From a virus, in IMG/VR virus record IMGVR_UViG_3300027896_000248, positions 1 through 22,194 of that record: DNA of 22,194 nucleotides; one strand, 5' to 3'. Positions within the stretch are counted from its first letter, which is position 1, and each line of letters begins with the position of its first letter. The notes under the pieces were generated by a model that saw only the letters and a program-made list of their open reading frames with translations, was not told the DNA's origin and did not search any database. Position numbers and translations under genes: made by a program. Below, piece after piece: positions 613 through 12,761 of this stretch.

Positions 613-646
613 TTGTAAACTAATTAAGTTTATTAGTTTATCTTTG
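613..646 (+). promoter_or_regulatory. Bacteroidota-type promoter for the tmRNA-tRNA cassette, with overlapping inverted repeat
   Basis: TATCTTTG at 639-646 matches the Bacteroidota -7 element TAnnTTTG. The best -33 candidate is TTG at 613-615, 23 bases upstream, a little longer than the usual 19-21. Transcription would start near 653. An 8-bp perfect inverted repeat, AAACTAAT (617-624) and ATTAGTTT (632-639), fills the spacer and touches the -7 box, the placement expected of an operator. The -33 element is weak, so the call rests mainly on the -7 box and its position before the RNA genes. Confidence 0.55.
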
Positions 647-653
647 CACTCTG

Positions 654-678
654 GTTAGGAAATTAATAGTTTCCTAAC
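654..678 (+). other. Hairpin at the predicted 5' end of the tmRNA transcript
   Basis: GTTAGGAAA (654-662) and TTTCCTAAC (670-678) form a perfect 9-bp stem with a 7-base loop. It begins at the predicted transcription start and lies 15 bases before the tmRNA acceptor stem. It could protect the 5' end, guide processing of the tmRNA leader, or act at DNA level as an operator. There is no U-run after it, so it is not a terminator. Confidence 0.5.
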
Positions 679-693
679 TGGGGTGCTTAATAT

Positions 694-1066
694 GGGCCCG
701 TTTTGGAATTGATTTCAGTGTTTGGGTTACTACACAAGTAGAGGTACCATGTATCCTCTTTAATAAAATATGGGAACAATAAATGTAAAAGTAGAACTTT
801 CTACTTGGACAATCGAAGATGCTTTAGCATTTGTAGGTTGTGACGAAGCAATAGCTGCTTAGTCAACCGGGGGTAAGCATATGTACCTTGCAACAGAAAT
901 GCCTTAATAAAAGGTTTAGATTCGACCTTAAGGAATCACTATAGTTGCAGATAACAATAAGGAAATAGGAATCTGATACTTGCTTATAAGGAATTATAAG
1001 ATAAACTTGTGATAAAATGTAGTAATTGCTTCAAGGAAAGACGTGGCTTCGATGCCACCGGGTCCA
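694..1066 (+). ncRNA. ssrA: tmRNA (transfer-messenger RNA), phage-encoded
   Basis: tmRNA rescues stalled ribosomes: it enters like an alanyl-tRNA and then encodes a degradation tag. The ends form a 7-bp acceptor stem, GGGCCCG (694-700) with CGGGTCC (1059-1065), containing the G3-U70 wobble that marks alanine charging; A1066 is the discriminator. After the 5' strand comes the conserved D-loop-like TTTTGGAATTGA. Helix H2 is TTACTACA (727-734) with TGTAGTAA (1018-1025). PK1 is AGAGG (740-744)/CCTCT (755-759) with loop CCAT (747-750) pairing to ATGG (770-773). The tag frame ends in ALAFVGCDEAIAA and stops at TAG 860-862. Downstream hairpins include CTTATAA-GGAA-TTATAAG (983-1000). The T arm is GTGGC/GCCAC (1043-1047/1054-1058). 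At 373 bases the length is normal. Odd points are a 6-base T loop (7 is usual), a long tag and an encoded CTA (1067-1069) in place of CCA. Confidence 0.92.
785..862 (+). other. tmRNA proteolysis-tag reading frame
   Basis: The frame downstream of PK1 is open to TAG 860-862 and ends with residues ALAFVGCDEAIAA, close to the usual ALAA-type degron read by ClpXP. The resume codon is normally about a dozen bases after PK1, which would place it between GTA 785 and GAA 794 and give a tag of about 22-25 residues, longer than the 9-15 typical of many bacteria. The frame is also open back to ATG 770, inside PK1, probably by chance. The exact resume codon cannot be fixed by eye. Confidence 0.6.
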
Positions 1067-1069
1067 CTA

Positions 1070-1143
1070 GCTCTTGTAGCTTAACTGGATAAAGCATCAG
1101 CCTTCTAAGCTGAGGACTATTGGTTCAAATCCAATCAGGGGCA
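1070..1143 (+). tRNA. tRNA-Arg(TCT)
   Basis: The acceptor stem pairs GCTCTTG (1070-1076) with CAGGGGC (1136-1142), using G-U wobbles, and A1143 is the discriminator. The anticodon arm is TCAGC-CTTCTAA-GCTGA with anticodon TCT, reading AGA (and AGG by wobble). The T arm is ATTGG-TTCAAAT-CCAAT. It starts directly after the CTA that follows the tmRNA and is itself followed by CTA, so CCA must be added after transcription. AGA/AGG are the dominant Arg codons in the genes of this window, so this tRNA fits a codon-supply role. Confidence 0.92.
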
Positions 1144-1147
1144 CTAT

Positions 1148-1218
1148 AGTTGTTTGGTGTAATGGTAGCACAACAGGTTTTGGTCCTGTTTGTATAGGTT
1201 CGAGCCCTGTAGCAACTA
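1148..1218 (+). tRNA. tRNA-Gln(TTG)
   Basis: The acceptor stem pairs AGTTGTT (1148-1154) with AGCAACT (1211-1217), and A1218 is the discriminator. The anticodon arm is ACAGG-TTTTGGT-CCTGT with anticodon TTG for CAA/CAG. The D arm contains TAATGGTAGCA and the T arm is ATAGG-TTCGAGC-CCTGT. CCA is not encoded. It lies 4 bases after tRNA-Arg and is the last RNA gene before the terminator. Confidence 0.92.
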
Positions 1219-1253
1219 CTTATAATTTATTACAGCCCATGGTTGTATTCGCT

Positions 1254-1306
1254 ACCAGTAGTAGGGTAGGAAGTGATTCACCTATCTTGCTGCTGGTTTA
1301 TTTTGT
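1254..1306 (+). terminator. Rho-independent terminator after the RNA cassette
   Basis: Bases 1254-1270 pair with 1281-1297 to give a 17-bp stem without a bulge, including several G-U pairs, around a 10-base loop. The U-rich tail TTTATTTTGT follows. It closes the tmRNA-tRNA-tRNA unit before the next protein gene at 1334. Confidence 0.8.
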
Positions 1307-1333
1307 ATCATCTCACAACTAAATATAAAAACA

Positions 1334-4795: not shown

Positions 4796-5077
4796 ATGTT
4801 AAAGAAACCAAGTACAACGGAATTAGTAGAAGTAGTAAATGAAGGATTAATAAGCCTGTTAGACCAAGAAGTACTAATAATGTGCTTTAACTATTTCTAT
4901 GCAGGGGTATTAGTAGGAGTAAATGATAGTTATATAAAATTATCAAACTGTCATATAGTGTATGAGACAGGAGCATTTAATGATAAGAAATATAAAGATG
5001 CTCAGAAAATAGCGGATGAATACTACATACAGTTAAGTGCAATAGAGTCATTTGGAAAAGGAATTAAATTGTCATAA
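4796..5077 (+). CDS. Small phage protein, possible Sm-like beta fold
   Basis: 93 residues. After an N-terminal helix (TTELVEVVNEGLISLLDQEV), the segment VLIMCFNYFYAGVLVGVNDS and YIKLSNCHIVYETG alternates hydrophobic and polar residues like a five-strand Sm/Hfq-type barrel, with a GVLVGVND turn. The C-terminal AQKIADEYYIQLSAIESFG would be a final strand. Similar sequences are common in phages as hypothetical proteins, so the RNA-binding idea is an inference from the pattern only. It is preceded by a 64-base A-rich leader after the HNH gene, and the hexamer-repeat ORF starts 2 bases downstream. Confidence 0.6.
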   Translation: MLKKPSTTELVEVVNEGLISLLDQEVLIMCFNYFYAGVLVGVNDSYIKLSNCHIVYETGAFNDKKYKDAQKIADEYYIQLSAIESFGKGIKLS

Positions 5078-5079
5078 AC

Positions 5080-5268
5080 ATGAGAATAGTACAGAGACCT
5101 CAGAGTAGATTAAGAAAATGGTCAGGGTCAAGGTCAAGGTCAGGGTCATGGTCATGGTCAGGGTCAGGGTCAGGGTCAGGGTCAAGGTCAAGGTCATGGT
5201 CAGGGTCAAGGTCAGGGTCATGGTCAGGGTCATGGTCAGGGTCAAGGTCAAGGTCAGGGTTAGTATAA
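5080..5268 (+). CDS. Possible Ser-(Gly/Arg/Trp) repeat protein
   Basis: 62 residues from ATG 5080, two bases after the preceding stop, beginning MRIVQRPQSRLRKW and continuing as Ser alternating with Gly, Arg or Trp to a C-terminal GLV. The repeat comes from hexamers read as TCA-NGG, where N is G, A or T. All three + frames are open through the array, so openness is weak evidence for coding. The main support is the well-placed start and the basic non-repetitive N-terminus. A rival frame, ATG 5118 to TAA 5280-5282, would encode Val alternating with Arg/Lys/Met (54 residues). The array may instead act as DNA. Confidence 0.4.
   Translation: MRIVQRPQSRLRKWSGSRSRSGSWSWSGSGSGSGSRSRSWSGSRSGSWSGSWSGSRSRSGLV
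5121..5258 (+). repeat. Tandem array of 23 hexamers GTCANG
   Basis: Twenty-three perfect head-to-tail copies of GTCANG occupy 138 bases. Only the fifth base varies, being G 11 times, A 7 times, T 5 times and C never; the other five positions are invariant in every copy. The array lies about 490 bases before the DNA polymerase start. It could be an iteron-like protein-binding array at a replication origin, or a low-complexity coding repeat. Confidence 0.95.
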
Positions 5269-11037: not shown

Positions 11038-11655
11038 ATGAAGGAAAAACAAGAACAAGAAAAGGAAATGGGTATAGTACTACCTACTCAGAAGTCAGAG
11101 CCATCTAAGATAAACCCAAGTACATTGATACTCTTTGGGTTGCAAAAGTGTGGAAAGACCACTACTCTTAGTCTATTAGAGAACTGCCTGGTCCTGGATA
11201 CAGAAGAAGGTACGGGATTTGTAAGTGTACTAAAGCTGTCTCCACCTAAAGGAGGGCCGGTGAGTAAAATGAAATGGTTGAAAGATGCTGCAAAAAGCAT
11301 TATGGATGCAGGAAGACCTTATGACTATGTAGCTATTGATACCTTTACACAGGTAGATGAATGGGCTGAGTTCAGTGCAACATACAAGTATATGAATAGT
11401 GTTACCGGACAAAAGTTCAATAGGGATAAAGCCGGACAGATGTTAAAACCTGATCATCCTGACTATGAAACTGTACATAATATACCAAATGGATATGGAT
11501 ACAGGTTCAGTAGACAAGAGATGATAGATGTATATGAACTGACCAAAGATCTTGGAAAGATATGCACTATATATGTATGCCATGTAAGCGATAAGTCAGT
11601 AGTGTCTAAAATAAGTAATCAGGAAGTAGTAACGAGAGATATAAGCCTTACCGGT
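11038..11655 (+). CDS. AAA/RecA-type NTPase, exon 1 (Sak4/AAA_24-like recombination ATPase)
   Basis: First 206 residues of a 264-residue protein interrupted by a group I intron. Walker A is GLQKCGKT (34-41, with K40). The Walker B strand is YDYVAID with D101. The exon ends with DISLTG, where members of this family continue into GKVK. Without splicing, ribosomes would add only KMNLN and stop at 11673. The family belongs to phage ATPases with a RecA core linked to single-strand annealing and recombination (Sak4-like). The location next to an SSB-like gene fits this role. Joining to exon 2 restores LTG-KVKDIIGRRVDAIGY in one frame. Confidence 0.85.
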
Positions 11656-12761
11656 AAAATGAATTTAAATTAAGTTTGGTATAGTCAAGAATAGGTATTA
11701 CCTTTACTGGATAAATATCTTAATTTTATGGCAGGTACATCAAAAGGAAATGAAGCAAGTAAGCAAAGAGCTATTATAAGAGTTGAAAACGCATATAACT
11801 ATTGGTTAGGTAATAAAGAGAAAGGAATGAAAAAAGCCGCATCTATGTTCAAAACAGACTATATGAAACTTAGAAATCATATAGAAAAAAATGGACATAA
11901 TTTATTATCATGTAACCCTGAAACATTTTCTTCAATAAATACAGAAGAAAAAGCGTATTGGTTAGGATTTCTGTATGCTGATGGGTCAGTTGGTTTAAAG
12001 AATAATGATGTGGAGTTAGCATTACAAGATTCCGATAATAACCATTTAGAAAAGTTCAAAACTTTTATAGGTAGTAGTAATAATATCAAAATAGATAGCT
12101 ATAGATGTAGATTAGTAGTATGTAATACAATTTTCAAGGAAAATTTAGTAAAATGGGGATGTACTGCACAAAAATCCCTCAAAATAAAATTTCCAGGTAT
12201 AGATAAAGAGCTTGTTAGACATTTCATTCGTGGTTATTTCGATGGAGATGGTTGTATATCAAGAGCTTGTTCTGATTGTTTATGGCATACAGCTTCTATT
12301 GCATGTGGATCTGAAGCATTTATAAACTCATTAAGTGTAATAATAGAAGAGTTTTGCAATGTTAAAACAACTGTATATAGAAAGTCTAAAGGGTCTAATA
12401 CATTTATAATATGTTTTGATGGTAAAAGATTTACAAAATTCATTAATTGGATATACAAAGACTGTAAAATATTCTTGGATAGAAAATATCAAAGATATTT
12501 AGATTCTGTTGCCGTTGTATTAAGCGATTAGTACAATTATAACTGGACAAAAACGGTGAAGGGTGGGATTCCTAATACCGTGCTAAACTGATAAACTAAA
12601 AAATATCAGTCAGTGTAACGCATAGGTACTGAAAACTGGAAACAGAATAAAATGTACCCAAGAGTGTCCGGCATCTCAAGTAGATGAAAATATATGCTGA
12701 GCTTACAATAATAAGAATTGTAAGAACATGAGGATAAAAAGCCACATGGGTAACAAAACTG
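11656..12761 (+). mobile_element. Group I intron with LAGLIDADG gene, inserted in the NTPase gene
   Basis: The intron follows exon base T11655 and ends with G12761, the group I rule of U before and G at the end. The core is complete after the inserted ORF. P3 is CTGGACA (12543-12549) with TGTCCGG (12665-12671). P4 is ACGGT (12553-12557) with ACCGT (12577-12581). P6 is ACTGATA (12587-12593) with TATCAGT (12604-12610). P7 is GCATA (12620-12624) with TATGC (12693-12697). P8 is CATCT (12672-12676) with AGATG (12682-12686), then J8/7 AAAATA. P9 is CTTACAAT (12702-12709) with ATTGTAAG (12717-12724). P1 can form between exon TACCGG and intron TTTGGTA (11675-11681). Precise removal keeps the host frame. 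Confidence 0.9.
11728..12531 (+). CDS. LAGLIDADG homing endonuclease, intron-encoded
   Basis: 267 residues. Two LAGLIDADG helices are visible: WLGFLYADG (78-86) and FIRGYFDGDG (166-175), with their acidic catalytic residues, so it should act as a monomer that cuts the intronless NTPase allele. The N-terminus (about 22-52) contains a helix-turn-helix-like segment, EKGMKKAASMFKTDYMKLRN. It lies inside the group I intron between P1 and P3, in the same direction as the host gene. Codon use (TCT, TTA, AAT) differs from the phage neighbours. The start ATG 11728 is preceded by TTAATTTT and lacks a strong ribosome site. It ends with TAG 12529-12531. Confidence 0.9.
   Translation: MAGTSKGNEASKQRAIIRVENAYNYWLGNKEKGMKKAASMFKTDYMKLRNHIEKNGHNLLSCNPETFSSINTEEKAYWLGFLYADGSVGLKNNDVELALQDSDNNHLEKFKTFIGSSNNIKIDSYRCRLVVCNTIFKENLVKWGCTAQKSLKIKFPGIDKELVRHFIRGYFDGDGCISRACSDCLWHTASIACGSEAFINSLSVIIEEFCNVKTTVYRKSKGSNTFIICFDGKRFTKFINWIYKDCKIFLDRKYQRYLDSVAVVLSD

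What the first reader, a model, noticed from the sequence alone, without database searches (positions are those of the whole stretch)
613..1306. Phage-encoded tmRNA in a self-contained cassette with two tRNAs, own promoter and terminator
The sequence shows a complete tmRNA (acceptor stem with G3-U70, H2, PK1, tag frame, T arm) followed within 5 bases by tRNA-Arg(TCT) and tRNA-Gln(TTG), a promoter box and a 17-bp terminator. tmRNA is a bacterial ribosome-rescue RNA and is only occasionally found in phages. Packaging it with tRNAs suggests the phage carries its own rescue and codon-supply unit for late, mRNA-degraded stages of infection.
Basis: partly seen in the sequence, partly recalled or inferred. 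Interest (0 to 1): 0.8.

Follow-up and report, generated by a model that had tools for sequence, protein, structure and literature searches.

The report
Divergent tmRNA cassette in crAss-like phage
This phage, related to the abundant gut crAss-like phages, carries its own ribosome-rescue RNA (tmRNA) with two tRNAs; the RNA is real and shows signs of selection, but it has an unusual T arm and a 25-residue tag, and default annotation tools miss it.

Summary
A full-length one-piece tmRNA lies at 694-1066 (RF00023 54.7 bits, cut-off 47, E 8e-23), followed by tRNA-Arg(TCT), tRNA-Gln(TTG) and a conserved 3' hairpin/terminator. Default ARAGORN and a default whole-window Rfam scan both miss it. The window is a 22-kb viral contig of a crAss-like phage, not host chromosome. 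Two homologous phages (G001, G003) show selection: T-stem covariation, a compensatory base-pair insertion in PK1, and synonymous changes in the tag's -A(I/T)AA* end. The cassette keeps its content in different flanks. The proposed promoter box is at chance frequency and not conserved. The tmRNA differs from 107 Bacteroidota ssrA genes: 25-aa tag ending AIAA instead of GENNYALAA, and a 6-nt T loop instead of 7. In a census, 6 of 19 phage tmRNAs have irregular T loops against 0 of 107 host genes, and one near-identical pair differs mainly by a block-swapped T arm. Phage tmRNAs are known (2.3% of phage genomes), and one is annotated in Crassvirales genome cr106_1, so this is a new variant of a known kind. 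Most likely function: ribosome rescue with host SmpB. Function is inferred, not shown.

The parts
646..686 (+). 19-bp hairpin just upstream of the tmRNA; possible leader/processing hairpin or terminator of the upstream gene
   Evidence: -26.5 kcal/mol, z -8.2; a shorter hairpin lies at the same place in G001 and G003
694..1066 (+). tmRNA gene (ssrA), one-piece, 373 nt to the discriminator base; CCA not encoded (CTA follows)
   Evidence: RF00023 54.7 bits, E 8e-23; ARAGORN relaxed threshold; homologues G001 and G003
694..700 (+). acceptor stem 5' strand GGGCCCG, pairs with 1059-1065, G3.U70
740..773 (+). pseudoknot PK1: S1 AGAGG/CCUCU, S2 CCAUGU/AUAUGG; S2 is one C-G pair longer than in G001 and G003 (compensatory insertion)
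785..862 (+). tag reading frame, resume codon GTA, VKVELSTWTIEDALAFVGCDEAIAA*
   Evidence: ARAGORN relaxed; 25 codons in all three phages; 5 synonymous codon changes, including three alanine codons of the ending and the stop
871..902 (+). PK2-like pseudoknot GGGUA/UACCU plus GCAU/AUGC, invariant in three phages (no covariation)
1043..1058 (+). T arm GUGGC-UUCGAU-GCCAC: 5-bp stem, 6-nt loop (canonical 7)
   Evidence: host control 107/107 with 7-nt loop
1070..1144 (+). tRNA-Arg(TCT)
   Evidence: ARAGORN; Rfam 69.1 bits
1148..1219 (+). tRNA-Gln(TTG)
   Evidence: ARAGORN; Rfam 59.6 bits; also in G001 and G003
1225..1307 (+). conserved two-hairpin 3' element ending the cassette; includes the terminator-like hairpin 1254-1297 with invariant loop motif AGUGAUUCAC
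   Evidence: model R1: single copy in window, G001, G003 and G048, each downstream of the tmRNA/tRNA unit; pair counts; fold

Best explanation
The locus is a working, phage-encoded one-piece tmRNA of a crAss-like phage, encoded in one unit with two tRNAs. In an infected cell the transcript would be processed to the mature tmRNA, given CCA and alanine by host enzymes (G3.U70), bound by host SmpB and EF-Tu, and loaded onto ribosomes stalled on broken mRNAs. Translation would then resume at GTA and add a 25-residue tag ending -AIAA that marks the product for host proteases, freeing ribosomes for phage genes. The two tRNAs would support the phage's AGA and CAA codons. Shown by sequence: identity, structure, selection on RNA structure and on the tag's end, cassette conservation. 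Inferred: expression, charging, SmpB binding, rescue, proteolysis.
For: RF00023 E 8e-23 over the full model. 7/7 acceptor with G3.U70, H2, PK1 and T stem in window, G001 and G003. T stems fully paired although three different sequences (GTGGC/GCCAC, GAGGG/CCCTC, GGGAG/CTCCC); one extra C-G pair in PK1 S2 of the window. In the tag, window versus G001 or G003 shows 5 synonymous codon changes, including GCA/GCT, GCT/GCA twice and TAG/TAA at the A-x-A-A-stop end. 25-codon frame kept without indels. Cassette conserved in G001 and G003 with different flanks. CCA not encoded, as in most Bacteroidota ssrA genes (CCA in 8 of 104). Other tmRNAs in crAss-like phages.
Against: The 6-nt T loop departs from the canonical 7-nt loop, and T-loop/D-loop contacts are needed for SmpB binding (PMC3968760). 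No SmpB gene in G001, so host SmpB must accept it. PK3 and PK4 are not resolved. No expression data. The promoter is unsupported.
Confidence: 0.72

Rival explanations
1. The phage tmRNA is mainly a competitor of the host tmRNA: it binds host SmpB and replaces the host tag GENNYALAA by another tag, so that rescued proteins are handled differently or host tagging is reduced.
For: Host tags are near-uniform in the pattern-selected control while phage tags are often longer and diverse. A tag-less phage tmRNA-like RNA of DS6A type inhibits tmRNA (PMC4131195). The T arm, which is part of the SmpB-binding elbow, is the remodelled part.
Against: The tag frame and its -AIAA end are under coding selection, and most resolved phage tags end in AA, which fits ordinary degradation tagging. 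The host control was chosen by its tag, so host tag uniformity is by construction.
Confidence: 0.15
2. A captured host ssrA or attachment-site remnant that is decaying.
For: tmRNA genes are common integration sites, and fragments occur in prophages (discussed in PMC9004378). The match is weak for a tmRNA and the T loop is irregular.
Against: Full length, 7/7 acceptor, compensatory changes and synonymous tag changes across three phages; the record is viral and the unit recurs in relatives.
Confidence: 0.05
3. An add-on to either role, about the T arm only: the irregular T arms of these phage tmRNAs are target-site escape alleles. A DNA endonuclease (free-standing homing enzyme of a rival phage) or an RNase cuts at the conserved T-arm sequence, and phages survive by swapping the T arm while keeping its pairing. 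The window's tmRNA would carry one such resistant allele and still work in rescue.
For: G035 and G038 tmRNAs are 98% identical, yet 5 of 18 T-arm columns differ against 3 of 391 elsewhere (p 4.8e-6). G035, but not G034, has an inserted stretch of about 630 bp with an HNH/endonuclease VII-like ORF just behind the tmRNA. G045 has an HNH_3 ORF about 70 nt behind its irregular tmRNA.
Against: HNH neighbours at 2 of 6 irregular versus 1 of 13 canonical tmRNAs, p 0.22. None next to the tmRNA of the window, G001 or G003. No cleavage data.
Confidence: 0.2

Closest known systems
Bacterial one-piece tmRNA (SsrA, RF00023), Bacteroidota type
   Same: Acceptor with G3.U70, H2, PK1, internal tag frame, T stem, no encoded CCA in most
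   Different: T loop 6 nt, not 7 (host 107/107); tag 25 aa ending AIAA, not GENNYALAA; low Rfam score; missed by default tools
tmRNA of crAss-like phage cr106_1 (Mahstovirus faecalis, MT774378, 29657-29960)
   Same: tmRNA in a Crassvirales genome next to tRNAs, annotated in GenBank
   Different: Canonical 7-nt T loop, tag DNTYRVAA, about 24% identity to the window's tmRNA over the alignment
Phage tmRNAs of mycobacteriophages (Bxz1, Catera, Wildcat), Bacillus phage G and OM43 phage Melnitz (PMC4131195, PMC9004378)
   Same: Phage-encoded ssrA
   Different: Melnitz has a two-piece (permuted) form; other phage groups and hosts; their T arms were not examined here
Mycobacteriophage DS6A tRNA-like-domain-only RNA
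   Same: Phage RNA with the tmRNA tRNA-like domain
   Different: DS6A lacks the tag domain, and a similar RNA inhibits tmRNA (PMC4131195); here the tag frame is complete

Membership tests
tmRNA (RF00023) | Covariance-model score over the curated cut-off, full length | tested here: met
   54.7 bits against 47, model 1-374
tmRNA (RF00023) | Alanine-type acceptor stem with G3.U70 | tested here: met
   7/7 pairs, G3.U70
tmRNA (RF00023) | H2 and PK1 around an internal tag frame | tested here: met
   H2, PK1 and a PK2-like knot present in three phages
tmRNA (RF00023) | Further pseudoknots PK3 and PK4 (number varies among tmRNAs) | tested here: inconclusive
   not resolved; this region diverges between the three phages
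tmRNA (RF00023) | Tag frame with resume codon and stop, degron-like end | tested here: met
   25 codons, -AIAA*, kept in three phages with synonymous changes
tmRNA (RF00023) | Canonical T loop of 7 nt TTCRANN (typical, not defining) | tested here: not met
   TTCGAT, 6 nt; host control 107/107 have 7 nt
tmRNA (RF00023) | Alanine charging, SmpB binding, ribosome rescue | not testable with these tools
   needs biochemistry
crAss-like phages (Crassvirales) | Hallmark replication genes | tested here: met
   PolA hits include crAss-like phages (36.8% to cr108_1; top hit is Leptolyngbya phage Lbo-JY46), primase hits are mostly crAss-like and Flavobacterium phages
crAss-like phages (Crassvirales) | Crass-type major capsid protein | tested here: inconclusive
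   outside the window; weak match in the relative G001 (24%, E 8.8e-7)

The most novel reading that the evidence does not exclude
Phage tmRNAs repeatedly rebuild their T arm (6- or 8-nt loops, stems swapped with full compensation) to escape an enzyme that recognises the conserved T-arm sequence, possibly free-standing homing endonucleases that insert behind the tmRNA gene; the window's tmRNA carries one such escape allele.
Probability: 0.2. Interest if true: 0.75.

Novelty: new variant of a known kind. Interest (0 to 1): 0.5.

Why it matters
tmRNA in crAss-like phages is under-annotated: default ARAGORN found 6 of the 19 phage tmRNAs collected here. A ribosome-rescue RNA with its own diverse tags in so abundant a phage group would bear on how these phages keep host translation usable. 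The irregular T loops are at odds with the standard picture of the tmRNA elbow bound by SmpB, and the block-swapped T arm in near-identical phages gives a direct handle on what selects for it.

Tried and rejected
Default whole-window Rfam and default ARAGORN miss the tmRNA. I did not conclude that the T loop causes ARAGORN's failure, because G038 and G034 have canonical loops and are missed too. Weak RF00023 hits in Lbo-JY46, cr111_1, crAss001, G011, G013, G025 and others are short stretches or tRNA-like matches, and were not counted. A general link between HNH genes and irregular loops is not significant (p 0.22). The first host G3.U70 count (6 of 104) used a wrong index and is superseded (107 of 107). 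The Terminase_3 model found nothing in six tmRNA phages. The primase alignment was too divergent for a collection scan.

Full report
What is there. The tmRNA at 694-1066 is real: RF00023 matches the whole model at 54.7 bits (cut-off 47), E 8e-23. It escapes default tools: the default Rfam scan of the window gives only the two tRNAs and so does ARAGORN. With a relaxed threshold ARAGORN-1067 with tag VKVELSTWTIEDALAFVGCDEAIAA*, the same frame read by eye. tRNA-Arg(TCT) 1070-1144 and tRNA-Gln(TTG) 1148-1219 follow at 3-base gaps.

Whose it is. The record is a linear 22-kb IMG/VR viral contig. Its PolA matches a Leptolyngbya phage (45.6%) and crAss-like phages (37% to cr108_1), and its primase matches crAss-like and Flavobacterium phages. 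This excludes the refuter 'host chromosome'.

Homologues. G001 (125 kb) and G003 (40 kb) carry the same tmRNA (73% identity to the window over the alignment, 94% to each other). All three have 7/7 acceptor pairs with G3.U70, H2, PK1, a PK2-like pseudoknot and a fully paired T stem. The T stem is different in each and always paired. The window's PK1 S2 has one more C and one more G that pair with each other (the gap placement is arbitrary within the CC and GG runs). The tag frame is 25 codons in all three. Window versus G001 or G003 has 5 synonymous and 5 nonsynonymous codon changes, and the changes cluster at third positions (2, 3, 7). In the end of the tag, A-x-A-A-stop, the three alanine codons and the stop all change synonymously. 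That is the pattern of a selected degron-like end. Because G001 and G003 are close relatives, these comparisons amount to about one independent contrast.

Cassette. A strong hairpin (646-686, z -8.2) precedes the tmRNA; relatives have a shorter one at the same place. Behind the tRNAs lies a two-hairpin element (1225-1307), a single copy in the window, G001, G003 and G048, and without a match in the 22 other records searched. 92% of its pair cells are paired and 5 pairs have a change on both sides. The covariation score is reached by 4 of 500 shuffles, but the count of doubly changed pairs stands out less (40 of 500 as high), and there are only four sequences. It ends in a U-rich tail, so it is at least a terminator. 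In G001 and G003 the unit follows a 94-aa ORF and a GGTCAG hexamer array; in the window the homologous ORF (4796-5077) and array (5120-5260) lie 3.7 kb downstream. The unit therefore keeps its content in different surroundings. G001 lacks a detectable tRNA-Arg at this place. The promoter box is at chance level.

Comparison with hosts. I collected 120 Bacteroidota loci by the coding pattern of the tag GENNYALAA. This selection makes the tag uniform by construction. It does not select on the T arm. An ARAGORN-free search that allowed loops of 5-9 nt resolved 107 of them: all 107 have a 7-nt TTCRANN loop and G3.U70, and the 13 unresolved are near locus ends. Most do not encode CCA (8 of 104 do), and nor does the window.

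Census of phage tmRNAs. Of 60 contigs selected by PolA (30, some only distantly related to the window's PolA) or by crAss-like capsid protein (30) without looking at tmRNA, 10 carry one over the cut-off (3 of 30; 7 of 30). Many are fragments, so the rate is a lower bound. Together with the window, G001, G003, MT835492 (below cut-off, 24.8 bits) and five contigs found by a tmRNA DNA pattern, 19 tmRNAs were compared. Those five were chosen by the tmRNA itself and their crAss-like nature was not tested. All 19 keep 7/7 acceptor pairs, G3.U70 and 5/5 T-stem pairs. Six have irregular T loops: window TTCGAT (6 nt), G001 AATCGAAG, G003 AGTCGGTG, G035 AGTCGAAG and G045 TCTCGGAT (8 nt), and MT835492 GGCAGTA (7 nt, not TTCRA). 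The triplet UCG, which would be positions 55-57, is kept in five of the six. G001 and G003 are close relatives, so independent events number fewer than six. Default ARAGORN finds 6 of the 19. Tags are diverse, and most resolved ones end in AA.

The T-arm swap. The tmRNAs of G035 and G038 are 98% identical, yet the arm GAGAG-TTCGAAA-CTCTC of G038 is GAGGG-AGTCGAAG-CCCTC in G035: 5 of 18 columns differ against 3 of 391 elsewhere, p 4.8e-6. Relative to G034, G035 has about 630 extra bases starting about 5 bases behind the tmRNA, and these encode an HNH/endonuclease VII-like protein. G045 has an HNH_3 ORF about 70 nt behind its irregular tmRNA, but G028 has one behind a canonical tmRNA, and overall the association is not significant (p 0.22). 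The window, G001 and G003 have none there. I treat target escape as a hypothesis. In phages with 95-98% identical capsid proteins (G045 and G048 against G001) the tmRNAs are only 34-38% identical in a partly shared neighbourhood, which points to allele exchange.

Function. T-loop/D-loop contacts are needed for SmpB binding (PMC3968760), so the irregular loop is the main doubt about activity. No SmpB gene was found in G001, so host SmpB would be used. Given the selection on stem pairing and tag end I think rescue is the likeliest role. Competition with the host tmRNA is the main alternative, with the DS6A-type inhibitor as precedent (PMC4131195).

Novelty. Phage tmRNAs are known: 402 of 18,146 phage genomes in one survey (PMC9004378). 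A tmRNA is annotated in the Crassvirales genome cr106_1. I found no paper in the held library whose title or abstract treats tmRNA of crAss-like phages, but I did not read all hits and the library lacks most subscription journals. New here, as far as I can tell: this divergent type, its irregular T loop with compensated stems, the tag selection, and the T-arm swap.

Noticed in passing
window 1225-1307; L224 4672-4759; L225 8425-8515; L363 3346-3440 (-): Two-hairpin element with invariant AGTGATTCAC loop motif at the 3' end of the tmRNA/tRNA unit in four phages; single copy per record; no Rfam family matched in the window. Possibly a new small structured RNA, at least a conserved terminator.
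   Followed up: partly
window 646-686: Very stable 19-bp hairpin just upstream of the tmRNA, with a shorter hairpin at the same place in relatives; leader/processing signal or upstream terminator.
   Followed up: partly
L324 4261-4971 (G035) versus L327 and L323 (G038, G034): Endonuclease ORF inserted just behind the tmRNA together with a block-swapped T arm.
   Followed up: partly
G001, G045, G048 (L224, L361, L363): Phages with 95-98% identical capsid proteins carry only 34-38% identical tmRNAs in a partly shared neighbourhood.
   Followed up: partly
window 4796-5260: 94-aa ORF followed by a GGTCAG hexamer array (23.5 copies); the same pair sits directly upstream of the tmRNA in G001 and G003.
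   Followed up: partly
window 11038-12531: LAGLIDADG endonuclease ORF (11728-12531) just behind a short Sak4-like gene (11038-11673); possible intron or free-standing homing gene.
   Followed up: no
L003 1275-3300; L129 932-3895: PolA frame broken near residue 447 in G001, and PolA split with a LAGLIDADG ORF in between in Leptolyngbya phage Lbo-JY46; the window's PolA is uninterrupted.
   Followed up: no
L254 12871-14289 (crAss001); L360 32221-33642 (cr106_1): TROVE (Ro60-like) protein gene; in crAss001 a weak tRNA-like RF00023 hit lies about 500 nt from it, in cr106_1 the annotated tmRNA lies about 2.3 kb before it.
   Followed up: no
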